A stretch of DNA of 39,276 nucleotides from positions 65,007 through 104,282 of the forward strand of contig PLES01000176.1 in NCBI GenBank assembly GCA_003137075.1, given 5' to 3'. Positions 24,849-37,855 of the stretch are shown piece after piece (positions within the stretch are counted from its first letter, which is position 1; each line of letters begins with the position of its first letter). The position numbers were made by a program, and so were the translations under genes. The notes below the pieces were generated by a model. The model was not told where the DNA came from, made no database searches, and saw only the letters and a program-made list of their open reading frames with translations. This DNA is from Solirubrobacterales bacterium. GTDB taxonomy: Bacteria > Actinomycetota > Thermoleophilia > Solirubrobacterales > Solirubrobacteraceae.

Positions 24849-24874
24849 CCGTACGCCTACGCGAGGGGTTTGTG

Positions 24875-26086
24875 ATGGGCGATAAGCGTCGAGTTGTCAT
24901 TACCGGTATGGGCGCGGTCACGCCTTTGGGCATGGGCACCCTGCCTCTATATGAGCGCTGGGCTGCCGGCGTGGTCGGCATTGAGGACGGGATGGGTGCG
25001 TGCTTGGACTTCAACCCGAGTGACCACTTCTCGGTCAAGGAAGCACGCCGTCTCGACCGCTTCTCGCAGTTCGGTGTGGTTGCGTCCGATGAGGCGATCG
25101 CGAGCGCCGGCTGGAATGGCGAGAAGCCGTACGACCCGATGCGAATCTCGACGATCCTGGCCACCGGTATCGGTGGAATCAGCACCGTGGAGACAAACCA
25201 CGACCTGATGCGCCAGAAGGGCGCCAACCGGATCTCACCGCTCGGCATCCCGATGTACATGCCGAACGCCGGTGCCGCCGCGGTTTCGATGCGTCACGGC
25301 CTACAGGGGCAGTCGTTCGGGATCGTCTCGGCCTGCACCAGCGGTGCCCACGCGATCGGGATCGCAGCTCGCATGATCCAGTACGGGGACGCTGACGCGG
25401 TCCTCGCGGGCGGCGCCGAGGCGACGCTCACGGAGTTCGGCTTTGCCTGCTTCCGTGCGGTTCAGGCGCTCTCCGAGATCGGCATCTCGCGCCCGTTCGA
25501 CGAGCGCCGTGACGGCTTCGTGATGGGCGAGGGTGCCGGCGTGCTGATGCTCGAGGAGGCCGAGGCCGCCAAGGCCCGCGGCGCCAACATCATCGGTGAG
25601 ATCGCCGGCTACGGCTCCACCTCCGACGCCGGCCACCTGACCGCGCCGGACCCCACCGGCCGTCCCGCCTCGATGGCGCTGACCTTGGCGATGCAGGACG
25701 CCGGTGTAACGCCGGAGGGCATCAGCTACGTCAACGCTCACGGCACCTCGACCGATCTCAACGACGCCTCGGAGACGCTTGCGCTGAAACTGGCGCTCGG
25801 CGAGTACGCCTACAAGATCCCGATCTCCTCAACCAAGTCCACCATCGGCCACCTGCTAGGTGCCGCCGGGGCGGTCGAGGCGATCGCGACCGTGCAGGCA
25901 CTCAACGCCCGCGTGGTCCCGCCGACGCTCGGCCTCGAGAGGCCAGGCGAAGGCTTGGATCTGGACTACGTGCCAGGTCAGTCGCGTGAGATGGTTGTGG
26001 TCGGGGATGGGCCTCCGGTCGCGCTTTCCAACTCGTTTGCCTTCGGTGGTCACAACGTCGGCCTGGTCATCAAGGGCCGCGGCTGA
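24875..26086 (+). CDS. fabF: Beta-ketoacyl-ACP synthase II (FabF)
   Basis: FabF elongates acyl-ACP by condensation with malonyl-ACP. The catalytic Cys lies in VSACTSGAHAIG (Cys154 from the ATG at 24875), with the two His residues in NAHGTSTDLND and STIGHLLGAAG. RRVVITGMGAVTPLG is the standard N-terminus and the 403-residue length is normal. A GAGGGG ribosome site precedes the ATG; a GTG three bases earlier is an alternative start. The TGA overlaps the ATG of fabI by one base, so translation is coupled. Confidence 0.95.
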   Translation: MGDKRRVVITGMGAVTPLGMGTLPLYERWAAGVVGIEDGMGACLDFNPSDHFSVKEARRLDRFSQFGVVASDEAIASAGWNGEKPYDPMRISTILATGIGGISTVETNHDLMRQKGANRISPLGIPMYMPNAGAAAVSMRHGLQGQSFGIVSACTSGAHAIGIAARMIQYGDADAVLAGGAEATLTEFGFACFRAVQALSEIGISRPFDERRDGFVMGEGAGVLMLEEAEAAKARGANIIGEIAGYGSTSDAGHLTAPDPTGRPASMALTLAMQDAGVTPEGISYVNAHGTSTDLNDASETLALKLALGEYAYKIPISSTKSTIGHLLGAAGAVEAIATVQALNARVVPPTLGLERPGEGLDLDYVPGQSREMVVVGDGPPVALSNSFAFGGHNVGLVIKGRG

Positions 26087-26874
26087 TGCCAGAGCTGCTG
26101 GCCGGCAAGCGCCTGCTGATCACCGGCGTCATCACCAAGGACTCGATCGCGTTCCACGTCGCTCAACGGGCTCAGGCCGAGGGCGCCGAGGTCCTGCTGA
26201 CGAGTTTTGGGCGGATCCGCCGGATGACCGAGCGCACCGCCCAGCGGCTCGAGCCGCCGGTCGACGTGCTGGAACTCGACGTCAACAACACTGAAGACCT
26301 CGAGGCGCTCGCCGCCGAGCTCCAGCAGCGTTGGGGTCGGGTGGATGGCGTCCTGCACGCGATCGCCTTCGCGCCCGAGGACGCCCTCGGGGGCAAGTTC
26401 CTGACGGCCCCGGCTGAGAGCGCGATCGCCGCATTCCAAACCAGCGCGTTCTCACTGAAGGCGCTGGCAGCAACCCTGGCACCGCTGATGCCGAGTGGCG
26501 GGAGCGTCGTCGGTCTCGACTTCGATGCCACTGTCGCCTGGCCGCTTTACGACTGGATGGGCGTCGCCAAGGCGGCGCTCGAGTCGGTCTCGCGCTATCT
26601 GGCGCGTGACCTCGGTCCCCAGGGCATCCGCGTCAACCTGGTCAGCGCGGGTCCGCTCGGCACCGTCGCCGCACGCGGGATCCCCGGCTTTGACAAGCTC
26701 GCGGCGCTCTGGGAACAGGCGCCGCTCGGCTGGGACATCGAGGACCCGAGCATCGTCGCCGGGCCGGTCTGTTTCCTGCTGTCGGACCTCGCCAACGGCA
26801 TTTCAGGTGAGATCCTGCATGTGGACGGCGGCCTGCACGCGATCGGCGCCCCGAGCGATCCCGGACGGCCCTGA
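26086..26874 (+). CDS. fabI: Enoyl-ACP reductase, InhA-like FabI
   Basis: FabI performs the last reduction of each fatty acid synthesis cycle with NADH. The 262-residue protein has the divergent SDR cofactor loop ITGVITKDSIAFHVAQ, HAIAFAP in the middle, and the Tyr155-x6-Lys162 active site (YDWMGVAKAALESVSRY). The surrounding sequence is closer to mycobacterial InhA than to E. coli FabI (GPLGTVAARGIPGF is also InhA-like). Coupled to fabF by a one-base overlap and last in the operon. Whether it prefers long-chain substrates as InhA does is not knowable here. Confidence 0.93.
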   Translation: MPELLAGKRLLITGVITKDSIAFHVAQRAQAEGAEVLLTSFGRIRRMTERTAQRLEPPVDVLELDVNNTEDLEALAAELQQRWGRVDGVLHAIAFAPEDALGGKFLTAPAESAIAAFQTSAFSLKALAATLAPLMPSGGSVVGLDFDATVAWPLYDWMGVAKAALESVSRYLARDLGPQGIRVNLVSAGPLGTVAARGIPGFDKLAALWEQAPLGWDIEDPSIVAGPVCFLLSDLANGISGEILHVDGGLHAIGAPSDPGRP

Positions 26875-26913: not shown

Positions 26914-27285
26914 TCAGGCGAGCGCCACCGAGTGGCCGTCCTCATCGACGGCCACGAACACAAAGCGGCCGGTCCCGCAGCGCCTGCGCTCACCTGAGAG
27001 CAGGACCTCAGCGTGCATCTCAACCTCAACGGTCACCGAGGTCCGGCCGGTGTTCACCACCGAGGCGTCGATCTCAACCACCTCGCCATGGCGGACCGGG
27101 GCTTCGTAGTCGATCTTCTCGACCGCGACGGTGACCATCGTCTTGCGCGACTGCCGAGTCGCCGCCACAAATGCGGCGGTGTCCATCAGCCGCAGCGCCT
27201 CACCGCCAAAGAGGTTGCCCTGGTGGTTGAGGTGCTGCGGATAGACGACCTGCATCATGCGGGTCTTGCCGGCGGCGTCGCTCAC
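26914..27285 (-). CDS. Acyl-CoA thioesterase, hotdog fold (YciA-like)
   Basis: The 123-residue protein (from GTG 27285) has the hotdog thioesterase signature HLNHQGNLFGGEALRLMDTA, with the catalytic Asp in the LMDTAAF helix, followed by VAVEKIDYEAPVRHGEVVEI. This fits cytosolic YciA/BACH-type enzymes that hydrolyse acyl-CoA to free acid and CoA. Its GTG overlaps the nrdA TGA (GTGA), so it is translated with the reductase operon, an unexpected pairing. It converges on fabI with 39 bp between the stops. Substrate length is unknown. Confidence 0.88.
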   Translation of the reverse strand: MSDAAGKTRMMQVVYPQHLNHQGNLFGGEALRLMDTAAFVAATRQSRKTMVTVAVEKIDYEAPVRHGEVVEIDASVVNTGRTSVTVEVEMHAEVLLSGERRRCGTGRFVFVAVDEDGHSVALA

Positions 27286-30200
27286 TGGCACGCCTCGCAC
27301 TCCTCACCGTTGAGCCTCGCGTTGATCGAGCAGGCGATCGCTTCAGCGGAGAGCGTGAAGTCCTCATCGGTCTCCGGCGTCGCAAGTGGCGCCGGCGCGG
27401 CTGTTGGGGCCGCTGCAGGGACTGGCGCTGGTGCGGGGACCGAGGCCACCGCGAGCGGCTCGGGAGCCGCTGTCGGCACCGGCTCGGAGACAGCGGACGC
27501 GCCGCTGATCGTCGCCTTCTCAATCGAGGAGGCACCGAGCGTGCGTAGGTAGTACGTGGTCTTCAGACCGGCGCGCCACGCGTGCCGGTACATGTGGCTC
27601 ATCGCCTTCATGTCGGGCGAGGGCAGGAACAGGTTCAGCGACTGTGACTGGTCGATCCACTTCTGTCGTTGTGCCGCTGCCTTGATCAGCCAGCTGCTGT
27701 CGATCTGGAAGGCCGTGCGGTAGCGATCGCGGATCTCTGTCGGGATCGTCGGGATCTCGCTGATGTCACCGTCACGCCGCTTGATCTCCTCTGCCAGCCC
27801 TGAGTTCCAGAGGCTGATCGCCTTGAGGTCCCTCACCAGGAACGGGTTCAGCACGACGAAGTCCCCGGAGATGTTGGATTTGGCAAAGAGGTTCTTGTAA
27901 AGCGGCTCGATGCAGGGCGAGGTGCCCATGATGTTGGAGATCGTCGCCGTCGGCGCGATCGCCAGCACGTTCGAGTTGCGCATGCCCTGGGCCGCGATCT
28001 TGGCTCGCAGCGGCTCCCAGTCGAGCTTGCCGCCACGCTTTACCTCGATCTCGACGCCACGCTCTGACTGCAGCAGCTCGACGGTGTCGTGCGGCAGCAT
28101 CCCGCGGTCCCATTTGGAGCCCTTGTAGGAGGAGTAGACGCCGCGCTCAGCGGCCAGGTCGCTCGACGCCTCGTAGGCGTAGTAAGCGACCGCCTCCATC
28201 ATCTCGTCGCTGAACGCGACCGCCTCCTCAGAGCCGAACGCCAGTCCCTTGCGATAGAGCGCGTACTGCAGGCCCATGACGCCGAGCCCGGTCGGGCGGT
28301 GACGGGTGTTGGCCGTGCGCGTCGGCTCGGTCGGGTAGAAGGTCACGTCGATCACGCAGTCGAGTGCCCGCACGGCGATCCGCACGGTCTCACGCAACTT
28401 GGCGTGGTCGATCTCACCGTCGGGCGTCAGGTGCTGGTCGATCACCACCGACCCGAGGTTGCAGACGGCGCTCTCATCCGGTCCGGTGTTGAGCGTGATC
28501 TCGGTGCAGAGGTTCGAAGAATGCACGACGCCGGCGTGGTCCTGGGGGCTACGCACGTTTGACGGATCTTTGAAGGTGATCCACGGGTGTCCGGTCTCGA
28601 ACAGCATCCTCAGCATCTGCTTCCACAGATCGATCGCCTCGATCTGCTCGCCGTAAAGCTCGCCGGCCAGCACGCGCGCCTCGTACTCGTGGTAGCGGGC
28701 CTCGAACGCGGCGCCGTAGAGCTCATGCAGGTCCGGAACGTCGGAGCTGCGGAAGAGCGTCCATGGCTGCCGCGCCTCCATCCGCTTCATGAACAGGTCC
28801 GGCACCCAGCAGGCAGTGTTCATGTCGTGCGTGCGGCGGCGGTCGTCGCCGGTGTTGCGCCGCAGCTCCAGGAACTCGCGGATGTCGTTGTGCCAGACCT
28901 CGAGGTAGGCGCAGCCGGCTCCGGCGCGCTTGCCGCCCTGGTTCACGGCGACCAGCTGGTCGTTGTGCATCTTCAGGAACGGCACAACGCCCTGGCTCTC
29001 ACCGTTGGTCGACTCGATGTGGGCGCCGGTGCCACGCACCGCCGTCCACGAACCACCAAGGCCGCCCGCCCACTTGGAGCACATCGCGTTTTCGGCGATT
29101 CCGCGTCCGACAATCGAGGTCAGCGTGTCCTCGATGTGGTACAGGAAGCAAGATGAGAGCTGGGGATGGTTGGTGCCTGCGTTGAACAGCGTCGGTGTCG
29201 AGGAGCAGAAGCGGCGCTCCTTGTACATCCCGTAGAGGTTGAGCACGTGGGTCTCACGCCCGTCCTGCGCCTCAGCCAGGCAGACGCCCATCGCGACCCG
29301 CAGCCAGAAGAGCTGTGGCGCCTCGATCCGGCGCGGCTTGGCGCCGGTCTTGTCGATGATCAGATAGCGGTCGTAGAGCGTCTGGATGCCGAGCACGTCG
29401 AAGTCCAGATCGGACATCGGGTCGAGCGCAGCCCCGAGCTTCTCGAGGTCGTAGGCGAGCAACCGCTGATCCATCCGCTTGATCTCGATGCCGCGCTCCA
29501 GCATCGGCCGCAGCGCCCGGCGGTGCGCATCACGCAGACCGCCGATACCGTCGCGCACGACGTCCCACTCGAGTGTCTCTTCGTAGACATAGGTGAGCAG
29601 GATCCGTCCGGCGAACGCGGCGTAGTCACTGTCACGTTCCACCAGTGACTTGGCGTTCATCACCACCAGCCGCTGCAGGTCCGCGCGCGGCACGCCCGGG
29701 CGGATCGCGCGGCGCAGCTCGCGCTCTATCGCATCCGCTTCGAGTGCCAGCTCGAGCCCGATCGAGGCGAACCCGATGCGAGCCTTGAGGTCGGCGCCGT
29801 CCCACAGCGTCTCACGGCCGTCGGCTTCGATCACCGGGATCGCGGGCAGCGTCTCCGGTGTCGGTGCCTGTGCGCGCTGCTGCGCGCGCAACAGCGCCCG
29901 CTCGGCCCGGTAGACGATGTAGCGCTCGGCGACGCGCATGTGCCCGGCGAGCACCAGCTCCTCCTGGACGATGTCCTGGATCGTCTCGATCGCGACGTAG
30001 GCGGTGCCGAGCGACTGCGCCCGCTCCGCGACCCGTGCGGCGAGGTTGGTGGCCGGCTCCGGATCGTGCTGCAGCGAGATGAAGGCCTTGCGAACCGCAT
30101 TCTCGATCTTGGCTGTGCTCCACGGCACGACTTCGCCGCTGCGGCGGATCAGGCGCAGCGTGCCGGTGGAGGCGCCGCTCGGCTCCCCGGGCAGCGTGCG

Positions 30201-30638
30201 CGTTACGACCAGCGCCTTGGCGACCTCGTAGTGCCCTGCGTCGATCAGTGCCGCCTCGACCAGGGCCGAGAGGTCAGCGCTGGTGATCACGGTTGGGCGC
30301 AGGTCGGCAAGCCGGGCAACGACGGTGGTTGTGGTTGCCCGCAGGATTTCCCGGCCGACGGCGGTGTCGGCCTGGTGCTCGTTACGTGCCGCGGCGAGCG
30401 TGCTCAGCGCGTCCGCTACCAGCTGTCCCGCCAGGGCAGGCGTGAACGCGTACTCCTCGCCTGACTCCTCACGCACGCGCATGTCGCCGGCGGCGGCCGA
30501 GTCGCCTGGTGCAACCTCGCCGATCACAGCCTCGGCCAGTGCCGCCCGCACGTCGATGCGTGGGCGCTGCGAGGGCTCGAGCGCGGCCGCTCGCTTGAGC
30601 TCCAGATCGCCCAGGATTTCTTCGAATTCGATCAGCAT
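27282..30638 (-). CDS. nrdA: Ribonucleotide reductase class I, large (alpha) subunit
   Basis: NrdA reduces ribonucleoside diphosphates to deoxy forms using a radical delivered by NrdB. The 1118-residue protein has a degenerate ATP-cone (about residues 50-147) and a full ATP-cone (about 160-252, TLRLIRRSGEVVPWSTAKIE), then the catalytic barrel. Active-site cysteines appear in QLSSCFLYH and ESAVCNLGSV (redox pair) and SSNLCTEI (thiyl site). The last 80 residues form a Pro/Ala-rich linker to a helix ending CEACQ, the shuttle Cys pair. The length and doubled cone resemble class Ic chlamydial NrdA. It starts two bases after the nrdB stop and is controlled by the upstream cobalamin riboswitch. Confidence 0.95.
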   Translation of the reverse strand: MLIEFEEILGDLELKRAAALEPSQRPRIDVRAALAEAVIGEVAPGDSAAAGDMRVREESGEEYAFTPALAGQLVADALSTLAAARNEHQADTAVGREILRATTTTVVARLADLRPTVITSADLSALVEAALIDAGHYEVAKALVVTRTLPGEPSGASTGTLRLIRRSGEVVPWSTAKIENAVRKAFISLQHDPEPATNLAARVAERAQSLGTAYVAIETIQDIVQEELVLAGHMRVAERYIVYRAERALLRAQQRAQAPTPETLPAIPVIEADGRETLWDGADLKARIGFASIGLELALEADAIERELRRAIRPGVPRADLQRLVVMNAKSLVERDSDYAAFAGRILLTYVYEETLEWDVVRDGIGGLRDAHRRALRPMLERGIEIKRMDQRLLAYDLEKLGAALDPMSDLDFDVLGIQTLYDRYLIIDKTGAKPRRIEAPQLFWLRVAMGVCLAEAQDGRETHVLNLYGMYKERRFCSSTPTLFNAGTNHPQLSSCFLYHIEDTLTSIVGRGIAENAMCSKWAGGLGGSWTAVRGTGAHIESTNGESQGVVPFLKMHNDQLVAVNQGGKRAGAGCAYLEVWHNDIREFLELRRNTGDDRRRTHDMNTACWVPDLFMKRMEARQPWTLFRSSDVPDLHELYGAAFEARYHEYEARVLAGELYGEQIEAIDLWKQMLRMLFETGHPWITFKDPSNVRSPQDHAGVVHSSNLCTEITLNTGPDESAVCNLGSVVIDQHLTPDGEIDHAKLRETVRIAVRALDCVIDVTFYPTEPTRTANTRHRPTGLGVMGLQYALYRKGLAFGSEEAVAFSDEMMEAVAYYAYEASSDLAAERGVYSSYKGSKWDRGMLPHDTVELLQSERGVEIEVKRGGKLDWEPLRAKIAAQGMRNSNVLAIAPTATISNIMGTSPCIEPLYKNLFAKSNISGDFVVLNPFLVRDLKAISLWNSGLAEEIKRRDGDISEIPTIPTEIRDRYRTAFQIDSSWLIKAAAQRQKWIDQSQSLNLFLPSPDMKAMSHMYRHAWRAGLKTTYYLRTLGASSIEKATISGASAVSEPVPTAAPEPLAVASVPAPAPVPAAAPTAAPAPLATPETDEDFTLSAEAIACSINARLNGEECEACQ

Positions 30639-30640
30639 CT

Positions 30641-31735
30641 CTAAAGCTCCTCGTCCGCGACAGCGGTCAACGCCGATGTCTTTGAATATTCGGTAACGCG
30701 CCCTTCAAAGAAGTTCTGCTCCTTGCGCACGTCCATCAGCTCGGCCAGCCAGGGCAGCGGGTTCTCGACCGGTTCACCGCCGGCGCTCAGCGGCGCCAAG
30801 CCGACACCCTCCAGGCGCCGGTCGGCGATGTGGTCGATGTACACCGAAAACTCTTCGCGCGAGAGGCCCACCGCCTCGACCGGCAGGCAGTCGGCGATGA
30901 ACTCCTGTTCCAGCCGCACGGCCTCGCGCATCGTCTCGCGCAGCTCGTTGCGGAAGCTCGACGTCCAGATCTCCGGTTGCTCCGTGATCAGCTCCAGGAA
31001 GAGGCGGCGGAAGAGTTCGATGTGGTTTGACTCGTCGCGCAGCGTGTAGCGGAACATCGTGCCGATTCCCGGCAGCTTGCCCTGGCGGTAGAGCGAGAGG
31101 ATCATTCCGAAGAGCCCGTAGAACTGGGTGCCCTCCATGCACTGGCCGAAGATGAAGATGTTGCGCGCGAGCAACGCGATCTCCTCCGGGTCCTGCATGT
31201 CGAGATCACGCCGCAGGCCCCATGAGGCGTCGGTCACGAAGGCGTTCTTGGCGACGATCGTCGGGATGTCTTCGAACATCGCCTCGCACTCGTGAGGGTC
31301 GATGCCAAGCGAGGAGATCATGTACAGCAGCGAGTCGGCGTGGATGTTCTCCTCATGCGCGTGGCGCCCGAGCACCATCTTCAGCTCGGAAGCGGTGACG
31401 AGCTCGCGGACCACGTGGATCACGTTGTCGCCGACGATGCCCTCGGCGGCGGAGAAGTAGCCGACGCCCATCCGCACGATCCAGCGGTCGATGTCGGAGA
31501 GCACGACGTCCGAGCGCCACTGCTCGATGTCCTTGGCCATCTGGACGTCCTCAGGCTCCCAGTGGTTGGCCTTCATCGTGCGATAAAGGTCGTACGCCCA
31601 CCCGTAGCGCAGCGGCATCAGGTTGAACGTCATCGTCTCCCTGCCGCCGACGACACGCTTGGCGGCAAGTGCCGCTTCTGCCTTGGTCTGGTCCAGAACG
31701 AAGGTCCTGGTTCCGAGCGTGTAGGTCTTCTGCAT
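30641..31735 (-). CDS. nrdB: Ribonucleotide reductase class I, small (beta) subunit lacking the radical Tyr
   Basis: NrdB houses the dimetal cofactor that starts the radical chain. From the ATG at 31735 (ribosome site AGAGGAAG) it has 364 residues. Metal ligands are Glu98, Glu129 and His132 (EENIH), Glu201 (CMEGTQF), Glu235 and His238 (DESNH). The position four after His132, Tyr122 in E. coli and Phe127 in Chlamydia trachomatis, is Leu136 (codon CTG at 31330-31328). The ligand spacings 31-3-72-34-3 match chlamydial class Ic almost exactly, and the first ligand is Glu rather than Asp. A Mn/Fe cofactor is therefore likely by family analogy. The C-terminal FFEGRVTEY carries the conserved radical-transfer Tyr. 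Confidence 0.94.
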   Translation of the reverse strand: MQKTYTLGTRTFVLDQTKAEAALAAKRVVGGRETMTFNLMPLRYGWAYDLYRTMKANHWEPEDVQMAKDIEQWRSDVVLSDIDRWIVRMGVGYFSAAEGIVGDNVIHVVRELVTASELKMVLGRHAHEENIHADSLLYMISSLGIDPHECEAMFEDIPTIVAKNAFVTDASWGLRRDLDMQDPEEIALLARNIFIFGQCMEGTQFYGLFGMILSLYRQGKLPGIGTMFRYTLRDESNHIELFRRLFLELITEQPEIWTSSFRNELRETMREAVRLEQEFIADCLPVEAVGLSREEFSVYIDHIADRRLEGVGLAPLSAGGEPVENPLPWLAELMDVRKEQNFFEGRVTEYSKTSALTAVADEEL

Positions 31736-33591: not shown

Positions 33592-34560
33592 ATGGAGAAA
33601 TGGCTCGCTAACCCGCGCAACGCACGCATCTGCGCCGGCCTCGGGGCGGCCACCATCGCCTGGTCCAGCATCCTCGTCAAGCTCAGCCACGCCTCGCCTG
33701 AGACGGCAGCGATCTTCCGCTGCGCCTATGCACTACCGCTGCTCGCGCTGCTGGCATTTCTGGAGGACCGCCGCTTAGGTGCGCGCGCCTGGGCCGACCG
33801 GCGCCCGGCGATATACGGCGGCGTTTTCATGGCGGTCGACCTGATCCTCTGGCACCACTCGATCGACGACGTCGGCGCCGGCTTGGCGACCGTGCTCGCC
33901 AACATCCAGGTGGGGCTGGTGCCGCTCGTCGCCTGGGCGGTGCTCTCCGAACATCCAGGTCGCCGGGTTCTGCTGGCGCTGCCGGTGACGCTTGCCGGGG
34001 TGCTGCTGATCTCGGGCGTGGTCGAGAACGGCGCCTACGGCAAAGACCCCGGCGCGGGCGCGCTCTACGGAGTCGGTGCCGGGATCTCGTACGTAGGCGT
34101 GTTGCTGTTGCTGAGGCGTGGCGGAGTCGACCTGCGCCGCCCCGCGGGACCGCTCTTCGACCTGACCCTGACCGCGGCGGTAACAGCCTGCGTGGTAGGC
34201 GCGGTCACCGGCGCGGCGAACTTCGTTCCGGTCTGGCCCGGCGCGGCCTGGCTGATCGTGCTGGCACTGACCTCGCAGGTCGCCGGCTGGCTGCTGATCA
34301 CGATGTCACTACCGCGGCTGCCGGCCGCGATGACATCGCTGCTGCTGATGATCCAGCCGATCGGCTCGCTGATCCTGGGAGCGCTGCTCTTCAGTGAGAA
34401 CCCGAGCGCGCTGCAGCTGCTGGGCGTTGGGCTGGTGATCGGCGCGGTGATCTTCGCGACTCGCGCCTTACCTGGGCCGGCTGCGCCTGACTCTGGGGGA
34501 GAAACCCGGCCGTGCGACGAGGTTCTCCCCCAGAGTCGAGCAAACGCCACAGCCGGCTAG
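33592..34560 (+). CDS. EamA/DMT-superfamily transporter
   Basis: The 322-residue protein has about ten hydrophobic helices in two EamA repeats, each starting with a GLGAATIAWSSILVKLS-like or GALYGVGAGISYVGVLLLL-like helix. The second repeat ends SLILGALLFSENPSALQLLG, as in RhaT/EamA exporters of metabolites and amino acids. Start ATG at 33592; upstream in-frame sequence is the palindrome, not protein. The polar tail after residue 300 is encoded by a hairpin (34489-34537) and ends four bases into the convergent cofE stop. Substrate unknown. Confidence 0.87.
   Translation: MEKWLANPRNARICAGLGAATIAWSSILVKLSHASPETAAIFRCAYALPLLALLAFLEDRRLGARAWADRRPAIYGGVFMAVDLILWHHSIDDVGAGLATVLANIQVGLVPLVAWAVLSEHPGRRVLLALPVTLAGVLLISGVVENGAYGKDPGAGALYGVGAGISYVGVLLLLRRGGVDLRRPAGPLFDLTLTAAVTACVVGAVTGAANFVPVWPGAAWLIVLALTSQVAGWLLITMSLPRLPAAMTSLLLMIQPIGSLILGALLFSENPSALQLLGVGLVIGAVIFATRALPGPAAPDSGGETRPCDEVLPQSRANATAG
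34489..34537. terminator. Bidirectional terminator-like hairpin at eamA/cofE junction
   Basis: GACTCTGGGGGAGAA (34489-34503) and TTCTCCCCCAGAGTC (34523-34537) are perfect 15-bp complements around a 19-nt loop. The structure lies within the last codons of the EamA gene and 20 bases beyond the stop of convergent cofE, so it could terminate both transcripts. Confidence 0.65.
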
Positions 34561-35318
34561 CGAAATAGATCCTGTTCCTGCGCCCTGATCAGCGTCACCG
34601 CGCCGGGACCGTCCTCATCGACCACATGCCGGTCGGCGCCGCGCACCAGGATCACCGGCTGCTGACCGTCTTTGCGCCGCGCGAGGTCGGCGGTCGCCGC
34701 CAGTTCGTCCGCGATCGCGATCACGGTCGCCTGCAGCTCGCGCCCGTGCGCGTCAGTACCGCCGCGCCAATCCTCGACCGCCGCGAGTCCCGCACAGCCG
34801 ATCGCAACATCACATTGACCGACTCGCCAGGCGCGGCCGAACGAGTCGGTGATCACCACGGCCGGTGCGACTCCGCAGAGCTCCAGCAGGCGGGCGCGCA
34901 GGGCCCGCGCCGAGGCGTCGGGATCGAGCGGCAGCATCAGCACCACGTCGTCGCCGGGCACGTTCGAGGCGTCGACCCCAGAATTCGCGCAGATGAACCC
35001 GTGCCGGGTCTCAGTGATCAGTACGCCCGCGACCGCGCGGATCACCGAGCGCGACTCATCAAGGATCACCTGCACCTGCCGCGGGTCCTTGTCGACCTCC
35101 TGGGCGAGCTCAAGCGCCCGCGCACTGGGCTTGACGTCGCCCAGCGCCGCGATCCGGCCCTCGCTCTTGGAGACGACCTTGTGCGCGAACACCAGCACGT
35201 CACCCGCAACCAGCTCTTCGGGCACCGGCCCGCTGGCCAGTGCCCTCACCACCGCCTGCGCCAGGTCGAACCCCGGCGTGACCTCAGGCAGTCCCTCGAG
35301 CGCCAGCGCCGAGATCAT
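34557..35318 (-). CDS. cofE: Coenzyme F420-0:L-glutamate ligase (CofE/FbiB N-domain)
   Basis: CofE adds gamma-linked glutamates to F420-0 with GTP. The 253-residue protein shows VFAHKVVSKSEGRIA (nucleotide/Mg region), RHGFICANSGVDASNVPGDD and VVITDSFGRAWRVGQCDVAIG, all conserved in CofE. Unlike mycobacterial FbiB (about 450 residues) it lacks the C-terminal nitroreductase-like domain that reduces dehydro-F420-0, so that step needs a separate protein or a different route. Its ATG overlaps the cofC stop by four bases. It is the last gene of the cofD-cofC-cofE operon. Confidence 0.93.
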   Translation of the reverse strand: MISALALEGLPEVTPGFDLAQAVVRALASGPVPEELVAGDVLVFAHKVVSKSEGRIAALGDVKPSARALELAQEVDKDPRQVQVILDESRSVIRAVAGVLITETRHGFICANSGVDASNVPGDDVVLMLPLDPDASARALRARLLELCGVAPAVVITDSFGRAWRVGQCDVAIGCAGLAAVEDWRGGTDAHGRELQATVIAIADELAATADLARRKDGQQPVILVRGADRHVVDEDGPGAVTLIRAQEQDLFR

Positions 35319-35977
35319 ATAGCCGCGCTGCGGGCCAGCTGGTTCAGCAGACCGCGCGTGTTCGCTGCGCCTCCACGCGTCGAAGCGAGCGTCGTCTGCA
35401 GCAGCGCAAAGTCCTCGCCGGTGTCGATATCGAGCGCCAGCGAGGGAACCTCGACCACCTCGGCCGTCGAACCCTGCGCCTGCGCGAGTTCGAAGTGGCG
35501 CTGGCGGCTGCCCTCGCCGAAAGACGGCGTCAGTGCGTCCGGGGGTGAGAGCAGCAGCGCGTTGGTGCCCGCGCCGTGCCGGTCCGGGATGATCATCGCC
35601 GTGGGGCCTGAGACCGGCAGCGCCAGCAGGGTGTCGATCTCAGTCGGATCGAGCAGCGGGCAGTCACCCGGGATCAGCAGCACCCGCGTGGCGCCCTGGG
35701 CGACCGCCCGTGAGATCCCCAGCATCGTCGCTTCGCTGTGACTCGAAGCCGTGTCGTCGACGACGGCGGCGCCGTAGCCTCCGGCGATCCTCGCCGCCGC
35801 GCGGTCTGACGTGACGACGATCACGCCGTCCAGCTCTTTGGCGCGGCGCGTGGCGACCAGGACGTCCGTGAACATCGCCTCGGCTATCGCGCGGCGGTGA
35901 CCGAAGTCGACAGCCTCGGCAAGTCGTGACTTGGCCTTGTCGAACTGCTTCATCGGCAGGATCGCGATCGTGCTCAT
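35315..35977 (-). CDS. cofC: Phospholactate/PEP guanylyltransferase CofC (FbiD)
   Basis: CofC/FbiD activates 2-phospholactate or phosphoenolpyruvate with GTP to give the precursor attached to FO. Residues 5-20 (ILPMKQFDKAKSRLAE) form the nucleotide-binding start of the family; LIPGDCPLLDPTEI contains the metal-binding Asp; NALLLSPPDALTPSFGEGSR and DIDTGED are also characteristic. The length of 220 residues is usual. It overlaps both cofD and cofE by four bases (ATGA), so the three genes are one translationally coupled unit. Actinobacterial enzymes mostly use PEP, so the product here may be dehydro-F420-0, but this is by family only. Confidence 0.93.
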   Translation of the reverse strand: MSTIAILPMKQFDKAKSRLAEAVDFGHRRAIAEAMFTDVLVATRRAKELDGVIVVTSDRAAARIAGGYGAAVVDDTASSHSEATMLGISRAVAQGATRVLLIPGDCPLLDPTEIDTLLALPVSGPTAMIIPDRHGAGTNALLLSPPDALTPSFGEGSRQRHFELAQAQGSTAEVVEVPSLALDIDTGEDFALLQTTLASTRGGAANTRGLLNQLARSAAI

Positions 35978-36951
35978 CTGCGCGGAACGCTACTTGAGGA
36001 CGCTGCCGGGGCGAGTTTGGTCGCGAAGTCGAGCGTTGTCGCGGCCAGCTCCCGGCGAGCTTGCGGCGTGTCCATCAGCGTCGGCGAGACCAAAACCACG
36101 GGTCCGGCGGTAGTACCAAGGGCGTCGTCGAGTGCTGCCGGCTCGTCGCAGATCAGCCCATCCGGGAGTCCGGTGTAGAGCTCGGCCAAGCCCGCGGCCG
36201 AGACAGGCACGCCAGCCCACGTCATGCATGCGGCGGTAGGGCCCTTGAGCACGGTGCCGCCGACGAGCGGGCTCACCGCCACCACCGGCGCGGGGCTGTT
36301 CACGATCGCGTCCCGCAGCCCGGGAACCGCGAGGATCGGGCCGATCGAGAGGATCGGGTTCGATGGGCCGATCACGATCGTGGCGGCGCCGGCAAGCGCC
36401 GCCAACACCTCGGGTGTAGGAGTCGCCGCGTCGGCGCCCCGGAACTGGATGTCCTCGATCGCGCCCTGGCCGCGGGCCTGGATCAGGAACTCCTGCAGTG
36501 TCCACCAGCGGCCATCGGCGAGCACGCGCGTGCGGACCGGCTGGTCGCTCATCGGCAGGACCTTCGCGCCTACGCCGAGGCTGGTGTTGATCGCCGCGTG
36601 TGCGAGCGTCAGGCGCTCGCCGTGAGCGAGGCCGGCGGCGCGCTGCACGCCGATCGCCAGGTCGCGATCGCCGAGGTTGAACCAGATCTCCTGACCGAGT
36701 TCGCGCAGGCCTTCCATCACGTTGAAGGTGTCGCCATCGAGGCCCCAGCCGCGGGCGTCGATCCGGTCGGCGAGCCAGAAGCTGATCAGGTCAGGGTCGG
36801 GGGAGACGTGAGCGCCGTAAAGCTCGACGTCATCACCGGTGTTCGCGATCACCGTCAGGCGCTCCGGGCCGACGACGTCCAGCATCCCGCGTGCGAGCTT
36901 CGCTCCGCCGGTGCCACCCGCCAACACAACCACTGGCCCACTCGTAGACAA
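35974..36951 (-). CDS. cofD: 2-phospho-L-lactate/PEP transferase CofD (FbiA)
   Basis: CofD (FbiA) couples the activated phospholactyl or PEP moiety to FO, forming F420-0 or its dehydro form. Motifs are LAGGTGGAKLARGM at the N-terminus, IANTGDDVELYGAHVSPDPD and GPSNPILSIGPIL. The open frame extends to an ATG at 37008, but that codon overlaps the divergent inositol-phosphatase ATG and adds about 20 residues foreign to the family. A TTG at 36951 or GTG at 36933 is more likely; I use 36951. First gene of the cofD-cofC-cofE operon. Confidence 0.92.
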   Translation of the reverse strand: MSTSGPVVVLAGGTGGAKLARGMLDVVGPERLTVIANTGDDVELYGAHVSPDPDLISFWLADRIDARGWGLDGDTFNVMEGLRELGQEIWFNLGDRDLAIGVQRAAGLAHGERLTLAHAAINTSLGVGAKVLPMSDQPVRTRVLADGRWWTLQEFLIQARGQGAIEDIQFRGADAATPTPEVLAALAGAATIVIGPSNPILSIGPILAVPGLRDAIVNSPAPVVAVSPLVGGTVLKGPTAACMTWAGVPVSAAGLAELYTGLPDGLICDEPAALDDALGTTAGPVVLVSPTLMDTPQARRELAATTLDFATKLAPAASSSSVPRR

Positions 36952-37006
36952 GGTGCGAGAGTCTAAGAGACAGGCTCTGAGATGACAGTCCCCTAAGGTT
37001 CTTGTC

Positions 37007-37855
37007 ATGGCCGACCTAGCGAGTAGTGACCCGATCCCTGACGCCGCGTTTGAGGATCAGTTGCTCGATGTCGCGGAGCGAGCCGCGCGAGCCGCGGGCG
37101 CGGAGTTGATCTCGCGCTGGGGCGGGCCGCTCAAGGTGCAGACCAAGAGCACCGACACGGACCCCGTATCCGAGGCTGATCTTGCGGCCGAACGCGCGAT
37201 CCGCGAGATCCTTGCGAGCGAGCGTCCCGACGACGCGATCCTTGGTGAGGAGGGAGGGGAGACCGGCGCCGGCAGCGAGCTCAGGTGGGTCGTTGACCCG
37301 CTCGACGGAACCGTCAACTACCTCTACGGTCTGCCTACGTTCGTCGTCAGCGTCGCCTGTGAGGACGAGCGCGGCGGTTTGGCGGCCGTCGTCTACGACC
37401 CGGTCCGCGATCTGCCGTACCGCGCGACCCGCTCTGGTCGGCCGCGCTGCGGCGGCGAGACGATTGTCTGCTCCGACGTCGGTGAACTGAGCCAGGCGCT
37501 GGTCGCGACCGGCTTCGCCTACGACCCAGGTGTGCGGGCCGTACAGGGCGGAACCGTGGCGCGGCTGCTGCCGCTGGTGCGGGATGTGCGCCGGGCCGGC
37601 GCCGCGGCGCTGGATATGTGCTGGTGCGCGTCGGGCCGGGTCGACGCTTACTACGAGCGCGGCGTCAAGCCGTGGGACATAGCCGCCGGGACGCTGATCT
37701 GCGAACGCGCCGGCTTGGTCGTGCGGCGGTTGGAAACCGTGCCGGCCCAACCTGGGCAGGCAGAGCTACCGAGTGGAATCGTCGTCGCGCCGCCGGGGCT
37801 GATCGACGAGCTCTACGAACTGGTCAAGCTGACCAGCCGGGGCCGCCGCCCCTAA
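37007..37855 (+). CDS. Inositol monophosphatase family phosphatase
   Basis: A Mg-dependent, Li-sensitive-type phosphatase. Metal-binding motifs are GEEGGE (about residue 79), DPLDGTVNY (about 97-105) and KPWDIAAGTLICERAG near residue 220. The length of 282 residues fits SuhB/inositol-1-phosphatase proteins, but related members act on histidinol phosphate, NADP or fructose bisphosphate, so the substrate is open. TAAGGT lies eight bases before the ATG. It is divergent from cofD and followed 16 bases after its stop by tRNA-Leu. Confidence 0.9.
   Translation: MADLASSDPIPDAAFEDQLLDVAERAARAAGAELISRWGGPLKVQTKSTDTDPVSEADLAAERAIREILASERPDDAILGEEGGETGAGSELRWVVDPLDGTVNYLYGLPTFVVSVACEDERGGLAAVVYDPVRDLPYRATRSGRPRCGGETIVCSDVGELSQALVATGFAYDPGVRAVQGGTVARLLPLVRDVRRAGAAALDMCWCASGRVDAYYERGVKPWDIAAGTLICERAGLVVRRLETVPAQPGQAELPSGIVVAPPGLIDELYELVKLTSRGRRP

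What the first reader, a model, noticed from the sequence alone, without database searches (positions are those of the whole stretch)
31300..31360. NrdB has Leu at the tyrosyl-radical position: class Ic-type signature
In EENIHADSL the residue four after the metal-ligand His is Leu136, where E. coli has radical Tyr122 and Chlamydia has Phe127. The ligand set E-E-H-E-E-H and spacings 31-3-72-34-3 match the chlamydial Mn/Fe enzyme. A Leu variant cannot form a stable tyrosyl radical, so a metal-based oxidant is expected.
Basis: partly seen in the sequence, partly recalled or inferred. Interest (0 to 1): 0.78.

Follow-up and report, generated by a model that had tools for sequence, protein, structure and literature searches.

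The report
Leucine-type class Ic ribonucleotide reductase
This bacterium carries a DNA-building-block enzyme that lacks the usual radical-carrying tyrosine and most likely uses a manganese/iron metal centre instead, as a known group of such enzymes does; it is a further member of that group rather than something new.

Summary
The window encodes an NrdB (minus strand 30641-31735, 364 aa) with Leu136 (codon 31328-31330) aligned with E. coli Tyr122 and chlamydial Phe127. It is not an error: of 201 other NrdBs compared, all 144 that are at least 45% identical to it have Leu; the other 57 (at most 39%) have Phe or Tyr. The class Ic reading is supported. Ligands E-E-H-E-E-H with second-sphere E/D equal the published subclass Ic (NrdBzc) pattern, relay residues are present, and NrdA keeps its catalytic cysteines and Tyr pair. 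Glu stands at ligand 1 in 171 of 171 non-Tyr but 1 of 31 Tyr proteins. In 37 of 54 relatives' genomes it is the only RNR detected, so it very probably works. But Leu is already a published subclass Ic residue (PMC6370689, PMC12918982; also PMC3824934). The Leu branch is a lineage of its own (nrdB-nrdA order; NrdA tree 100/99) next to the Phe-type branch. The Mn/Fe cofactor itself cannot be shown by sequence. Verdict: new member of a known kind; I found no biochemistry on a Leu-type member.

The parts
30641..31735 (-). nrdB: class I RNR beta (radical-generating) subunit, 364 aa, Leu-type, subclass Ic-like
   Evidence: ORF; PF00268 E 1.5e-61; best PDB sequence match Chlamydia trachomatis R2c; fold
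31328..31330 (-). codon CTG of Leu136, at the position of the radical Tyr (E. coli Tyr122, Ct Phe127)
31442..31444 (-). Glu98, metal ligand 1 (Asp in 30 of 31 Tyr-type enzymes compared)
31349..31351 (-). Glu129, metal ligand 2
31340..31342 (-). His132, metal ligand 3
31133..31135 (-). Glu201, metal ligand 4
31031..31033 (-). Glu235, metal ligand 5
31022..31024 (-). His238, metal ligand 6
31559..31561 (-). Trp59 (Ct W51, E. coli W48), electron-relay / radical-transfer residue
31046..31048 (-). Tyr230 (Ct Y222, relay Tyr of R2c)
   Evidence: role from PMC4118035 passage
31034..31036 (-). Asp234 (Ct D226, E. coli D237)
31322..31324 (-). Tyr138 (H+6, Ct Y129), near but not at the radical site
30686..30688 (-). 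Tyr350, C-terminal tail Tyr (Ct Y338, E. coli Y356; role in transfer to NrdA recalled)
27282..30638 (-). nrdA: catalytic alpha subunit, 1118 aa, one Pfam ATP-cone, catalytic Cys497/711/726, Tyr1029-Tyr1030, C-terminal CEAC

Best explanation
A functional subclass Ic-type class I ribonucleotide reductase. NrdB holds a dinuclear metal centre (E98, E129, H132, E201, E235, H238) with the radical Tyr replaced by inert Leu136. Most likely a Mn(II)/Fe(II) pair reacts with O2 (Mn at site 1), an electron delivered through Tyr230/Trp59 leaves Mn(IV)/Fe(III), and this metal oxidant, in place of a tyrosyl radical, draws an electron from NrdA Cys711 along Trp59/Tyr350 (NrdB) and Tyr1030/Tyr1029 (NrdA). Shown here: residues, ligands, partner gene, conservation of Leu among relatives, and that the enzyme is the only RNR detected in many relatives' genomes. 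Inferred from the chlamydial and E. coli enzymes: metal identity, oxidation states and electron route.
For: Leu in all 144 of 201 compared NrdBs that are at least 45% identical to the window. Signature EEHEEH/ED in 144 of 145 Leu rows (window included; one row truncated) and 26 of 26 Phe rows; it equals the NrdBzc row of PMC6370689 Table 4. Best PDB sequence match is Ct R2c; an AlphaFold model (mean pLDDT 86.5) has Ct NrdB at ranks 1-13. W59 in 145 of 145 Leu rows, D234 in 144 and Y350 in 143 (the rest gaps), Y230 in 142 (2 Asn, 1 gap). NrdA catalytic Cys, Asn, Glu and Tyr pair present. Sole RNR detected in 37 of 54 Leu-type genomes and in G418 (IMCC26134, complete) and G419 (a Fimbriimonadaceae chromosome). 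NrdA tree: Leu rows one branch 100/99, united at 91/88 with the partners of most Phe NrdBs.
Against: No sequence result identifies the metals. In the NrdB tree Leu and Phe rows are not one clade (AU p 0.0135; 0.041 with the Pseudomonas-type Tyr rows not counted; long branches). In the NrdA tree the same test, Pseudomonas-type rows outside, gives p 0.000865. 41 positions differ between the branches by the criterion, so the cofactor could be tuned differently. Gene order differs from Chlamydia. Score to the nearest NCBIfam model is just below its cut-off (295.6 v. 309). The genomes in which it is the only RNR detected may be incomplete (no completeness was given).
Confidence: 0.8

Rival explanations
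1. Metal-based oxidant, but not Mn(IV)/Fe(III): the Leu branch uses another pair (for example Mn2 as in class Id, or a high-valent Fe2) in a remodelled pocket.
For: Positions kept in at least 95% of the Leu rows differ from the Phe rows, e.g. H125 (Ct Q116), G197 (Ct Y189), Q198 (Ct I190), T203 (Ct I195), Q204 (Ct F196), T231 (Ct I223). Class Id also has Glu at ligand 1 (PMC6370689 Table 4).
Against: Class Id keeps Tyr at the site (Tyr/Glu pairing, PMC8463856), and its studied members have Lys three residues before the Trp (PMC6754362); here A, N, S or T stands there in 145 of 145 Leu rows. Ligands and the Y222 equivalent are those of Ic.
Confidence: 0.13
2. A displaced tyrosyl radical: Tyr138 (H+6) or another nearby Tyr carries the radical.
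For: Y138 is present in 142 of 145 Leu and 26 of 26 Phe rows.
Against: The same Tyr exists in the chlamydial enzyme (Ct Y129), whose active oxidant is metal-centred (PMC8463856). L187 has His there and sits beside its own nrdA; the second copies L185b and L186b also have His.
Confidence: 0.04
3. An inactive or regulatory beta subunit, with real dNTP synthesis by another RNR.
For: The window's own genome also carries a class II NrdJ (PF02867; TIGR02504 433.8 bits over its cut-off of 399.95). PMC6544083 names a B12-dependent RNR marker for all Thermoleophilia (one table passage).
Against: All six ligands kept in 144 of 145 Leu rows (the other is truncated); sole RNR detected in 37 of 54 relatives' genomes and in G418 and G419.
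Confidence: 0.03

Closest known systems
Chlamydia trachomatis class Ic NrdB / R2c (1SYY, 4M1I)
   Same: EEHEEH ligands with Glu at ligand 1, E/D second sphere, inert residue at the radical site, W51, Y222, Y338, D226 and Y129 equivalents; 129 of 340 aligned residues identical; ranks 1-13 of the fold list
   Different: Leu, not Phe; nrdB lies before nrdA (nrdA before nrdB in Chlamydia, PMC3019208 table passage); one Pfam ATP-cone against 3 reported for Ct (PMC9669993 passage); a separate branch in the NrdB tree
Subclass Ic group NrdBzc of RNRdb (Phe, Leu or Val; PMC6370689, PMC12918982)
   Same: meets the published residue and ligand definition, Leu included
   Different: RNRdb profiles were not available, so placement in NrdABz or in the neighbouring NrdAq-type group (PMC9669993) is not settled
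Haloarchaeal and Verrucomicrobiota Phe-type NrdB (L115, L116, L188-L195)
   Same: Glu at ligand 1 and the Y222 equivalent
   Different: Phe at the site; nrdA-nrdB order in all 13 of 14 Phe loci examined whose NrdA lies on the piece (the 14th, L229, is a short contig)
Marine viral Ic-like clade with Val or Ile (PMC12918982)
   Same: inert residue; 67 of 93 viral relatives read here have Val with Glu at ligand 1
   Different: Val; viral; mostly 34-38% identity; that my Val group is the clade of that paper is inferred
Class O / Cyano SP RNR
   Same: Phe or Leu at the site (PMC9531940 passage) and Glu at ligand 1 (PMC6370689)
   Different: second-sphere Asp where the window has Glu128; C-termini described as unusually short

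Membership tests
Class I RNR subclass Ic (NrdBzc) | Phe, Leu or Val at the Tyr-radical site (PMC6370689) | tested here: met
   Leu136; definition read
Class I RNR subclass Ic (NrdBzc) | first sphere E E H E E H, second sphere E D | tested here: met
   EEHEEHED in the window and 144 of 145 Leu rows in all (one truncated)
Class I RNR subclass Ic (NrdBzc) | Y222 and W51 equivalents for the one-electron relay | tested here: met
   Y230 and W59; Y230 in 142 of 145, W59 in 145 of 145 Leu rows
Class I RNR subclass Ic (NrdBzc) | lineage NrdABz shared with Chlamydia | tested here: inconclusive
   NrdA tree: a 91/88 branch unites Leu rows with partners of most Phe NrdBs and of Pseudomonas-type Tyr NrdBs (no chlamydial NrdA in it; midpoint root); as one clade not rejected (p 0.253), Leu and Phe alone rejected (p 0.000865); NrdB trees unsure, long branches; no RNRdb profile
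Class I RNR subclass Ic (NrdBzc) | active Mn(IV)/Fe(III) cofactor | not testable with these tools
   needs protein
Class Ia | Tyr at the radical site and Asp at ligand 1 | tested here: not met
   Leu and Glu
Class Ib (NrdF) | radical Tyr and NrdF family score | tested here: not met
   Leu at the site; TIGR04171 48.7 v. cut-off 355
Class Ib (NrdF) | NrdI partner | not tested
   NrdI was not searched for
Class Id (NrdBi) | Tyr/Glu pairing; Lys three before the Trp in the studied members | tested here: not met
   Leu136; no Lys at W-3 in 145 of 145 Leu rows
Class Ie (NrdFe) | metal-ligand carboxylates replaced | tested here: not met
   all six ligands present
R2lox | no C-terminal radical-transfer Tyr (PMC3824934 passage) | tested here: not met
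   Tyr350 present; nrdA adjacent
Class O (Cyano SP) | second-sphere Asp at position 7 | tested here: not met
   Glu128 in the window; feature read

The most novel reading that the evidence does not exclude
The Leu branch is a separately evolved metal-oxidant RNR: Tyr was lost and ligand 1 became Glu independently of the chlamydial Phe branch, with a different second sphere, and its active cofactor differs from chlamydial Mn(IV)/Fe(III) in metal pair or assembly.
Probability: 0.15. Interest if true: 0.6.

Novelty: new member of a known kind. Interest (0 to 1): 0.3.

Why it matters
It shows a large set of tyrosine-free RNRs beyond chlamydiae and haloarchaea, in at least three bacterial phyla by record titles and phylum searches, and in 37 of 54 such genomes with no other RNR detected. 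Together with Phe, Val and Tyr relatives it gives a natural series, each inert state seen with Glu at ligand 1, for testing what makes a metal-only oxidant possible. The listings (open-access library only) showed me no biochemical study of a Leu-type member.

Tried and rejected
Ideas rejected. Sequencing error or frameshift behind the Leu: excluded by its relatives. Broken NrdJ in the own genome: the two ORFs on C133 meet at a 2-base run of N, so it says nothing about loss. Tyr138 as radical site, class Id, class Ie, R2lox and dead subunit: see rivals and membership test. NrdR boxes: the recalled consensus ACACWATATATWGTGT gave 0 matches at up to 3 mismatches, with 0.00 expected by chance; no conclusion drawn. 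First AlphaFold model (24 close relatives, mean pLDDT 58.7) was too poor and not used; the second (40 rows, 86.5) was used for fold comparison only, as no coordinates are given out and no distances could be measured. Independent-pairs test of Tyr with Asp at ligand 1: both well-supported pairs agree, but two pairs cannot reach significance. A viral scan with the Leu alignment found one distant relative. A paper search on Tyr129/F127Y found nothing.

Rows dropped or set by hand before counts: the 202-protein NrdB set keeps phmmer hits of at least 60 bits and drops exact duplicates, so low-scoring PF00268 hits of Thermoleophilia, and L085, a Tyr-motif NrdB of G122, are not in it. The viral set holds 93 readable ORFs of 99 loci fetched and is not dereplicated. 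NrdA tree: L002, L037, L254, L247, L248, L250, L251 and L114 left out, and the label of L235 set to Leu by hand because the script read a wrong motif (its motif is seen as L187). No chlamydial NrdA was available for that tree. The 54 genomes are genomes with a Leu-type NrdB; left out were G542, G630, G551, G638, G601, G474 and G803, while G418, G426 and G419 were examined.

Full report
What is there. The window's minus strand carries nrdB (30641-31735, ATG start, 364 aa) followed by nrdA (27282-30638, 1118 aa). NrdB matches PF00268 (E 1.5e-61) and NrdA the RNR barrel, all-alpha and one ATP-cone model. H132+4 is Leu136, codon CTG at 31328-31330. In an alignment with E. coli NrdB (NC_000913 record) and chlamydial R2c (1SYY residues 5-345), Leu136 falls in the column of Tyr122 and Phe127; the six ligands, W59, D234 and Y350 fall on their counterparts, and Y230 on Ct Y222 (E. 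coli has Leu there). Its spacing list needs one correction: ligand to ligand it is 31-3-69-34-3, against 31-3-70-34-3 in Chlamydia and 31-3-86-34-3 in E. coli.

It is not a private mutation. All 80 nearest loci in genome contigs have Leu in an ENIHADSL-type motif (ENVHADSL in L034) (the script's first-motif tally printed one D, for L041, where an earlier unrelated ExxH was read first; one search kept the best 80 of at least 585 confirmed relatives). After adding genomes of the window's phylum, of the phyla of G418 and G419 and plasmid records, 202 distinct NrdB proteins split into 145 Leu, 31 Tyr and 26 Phe at this site. The split follows similarity: all 144 proteins at least 45% identical to the window have Leu, and the other 57, at most 38.7% identical, have Phe (26) or Tyr (31). 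By record titles the Leu loci are mostly Solirubrobacterales and other actinobacteria, Verrucomicrobia/Opitutae and Fimbriimonadaceae; single records are titled Kiritimatiellaeota (L057) and, as a metagenome bin, Rubrivivax (L028).

The residue goes with the metal ligand. Ligand 1 is Glu in 145 of 145 Leu and 26 of 26 Phe proteins and Asp in 30 of 31 Tyr proteins; the exception is a Blattabacterium plasmid protein, L123. Among 93 viral relatives, not dereplicated, 67 have Val and 7 Phe, all with Glu; 18 have Tyr, all with Asp; one could not be read. This is clustered by descent: on the tree only two well-supported independent pairs exist, both agreeing, so the coupling is striking but not statistically independent evidence.

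It very probably works as an enzyme. NrdA keeps the equivalents of E. coli C225, N437, C439, E441, C462, Y730 and Y731 (C497, N709, C711, E713, C726, Y1029, Y1030) and a C-terminal CEAC (E. coli roles recalled). Of 54 genomes with a Leu-type NrdB, 40 have a single PF02867 match, and 37 of the 54 have that and no class III NrdD; how complete those genomes are was not told. IMCC26134 (G418, titled complete genome) and a Fimbriimonadaceae chromosome (G419) have one NrdA, one NrdB and no NrdD. Against this, some relatives do have a second RNR, and so has the window's own genome: a class II NrdJ (TIGR02504 over its cut-off) and no NrdD. Within its class the Leu-type NrdB is sporadic, 7 of 149 genomes including its own. 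Its one sampled congener, G139, has one PF02867 match and no NrdB, which fits gain by transfer onto an NrdJ background (inference). PMC6544083 lists a B12-dependent RNR marker for all Thermoleophilia (one passage seen).

Relation to the chlamydial enzyme. Ct R2c is the best PDB match by sequence (E 9.3e-71) and fills ranks 1-13 by fold for an AlphaFold model of mean pLDDT 86.5. In NrdB trees with the radical-site and ligand-1 columns removed, Leu proteins form one branch (98/96; 91/78 in a smaller set), apart from the group that holds Ct and the Phe rows (and, on long branches, Tyr rows). In the NrdA tree (39 rows, midpoint root, no chlamydial NrdA in it) the partners of Leu NrdBs form a branch of 100/99, and a 91/88 branch unites them with the partners of 11 of 13 Phe NrdBs and of two Pseudomonas-type Tyr NrdBs, which lie among the Phe rows. 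Holding Leu and Phe rows together without those Tyr rows is rejected (p 0.000865), with them it is not (p 0.253). So Tyr was either lost early and regained in the Pseudomonas type, or lost more than once; this is open. A second Phe group (L230, L234) sits elsewhere. Gene order separates the branches: nrdB-nrdA in 65 of the 80 Leu loci, 13 without NrdA on the piece and 2 scored the other way by the script because of a long read-through frame (L005, put right, and L042, not re-examined); nrdA-nrdB in the 13 Phe loci where NrdA was found, of 14 examined. Chlamydia is nrdA-nrdB (PMC3019208 table passage).

Mechanism. From passages of PMC4118035 and PMC8463856: in Ct R2c, Mn(II)/Fe(II) reacts with O2, Mn at site 1, and an electron passed via Y222 and W51 leaves Mn(IV)/Fe(III), which replaces the tyrosyl radical. 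The residues named there are present here. The same route is the best explanation for the window protein; the metals are inferred. By one criterion (at least 95% in Leu rows, at least 70% another residue in Phe rows) 41 positions differ between the branches, Leu136 and one tail position that Phe rows lack included; among them are H125, G197, Q198, T203, Q204 and T231. That some of these lie near the metals is recalled from E. coli numbering, not measured.

What is known. Leu here is not new. PMC6370689 (passages) assigns NrdBz proteins with Phe, Leu or Val at the Tyr site to subclass Ic, citing Lundin 2009, and gives ligands E E H E E H with second sphere E, D, which the window matches. PMC12918982 (section 26 and passages) calls Phe or Leu the subclass Ic reference residues and describes a viral Ile/Val Ic-like clade. 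PMC3824934 (passage) cites Hogbom 2010 (not read) for Leu, Ile and Val in R2c. [quoted passage not shown] The search listings (an open-access library only; most listed papers were not opened) showed no biochemical work on a Leu-type member.

Verdict. Interest is moderate to low: a specialist would expect Leu in subclass Ic, but a large, apparently uncharacterised branch that is often a genome's only detected RNR is a good test case.

Noticed in passing
L185 (G542:C11) and L186 (G630:C42): Tandem nrdB-nrdB'-nrdA operons in two genomes of the G418 phylum; the second copy (52-53% identical to the window) keeps the ligands and Leu but has Asn at the Tyr230 position and His at Tyr138: a possible beta/beta' heterodimer.
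   Followed up: partly
viral loci L275-L373: 67 of 93 viral NrdB relatives have Val at the radical site with Glu at ligand 1 (motif ESLHNLTVVY in those printed); resembles the Ic-like viral clade of PMC12918982.
   Followed up: partly
G463 and G484 (L200, L199): Genomes of about 0.9 Mb keep the Leu-type RNR as the only one detected.
   Followed up: no
L123 (Blattabacterium plasmid pMADAR_001): Tyr at the radical site with Glu at ligand 1, the pairing reported for class Id, on a 3-kb plasmid.
   Followed up: no
L230 (G344), L234 (G690), L136-L139: A second Phe-type group (motifs EANHCMSFEY, EVNHTMAFEY, EMNHTVTFDY) far from the other Phe rows: L230 and L234 in the NrdA tree, L136, L138 and L140 on long branches in the NrdB trees.
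   Followed up: no
window 34557-37008 (-): Coenzyme F420 genes cofE, cofC and cofD in a row.
   Followed up: no
window 24872-26874 (+): fabF and fabI lie next to the RNR operon on the other strand, convergent with it.
   Followed up: no
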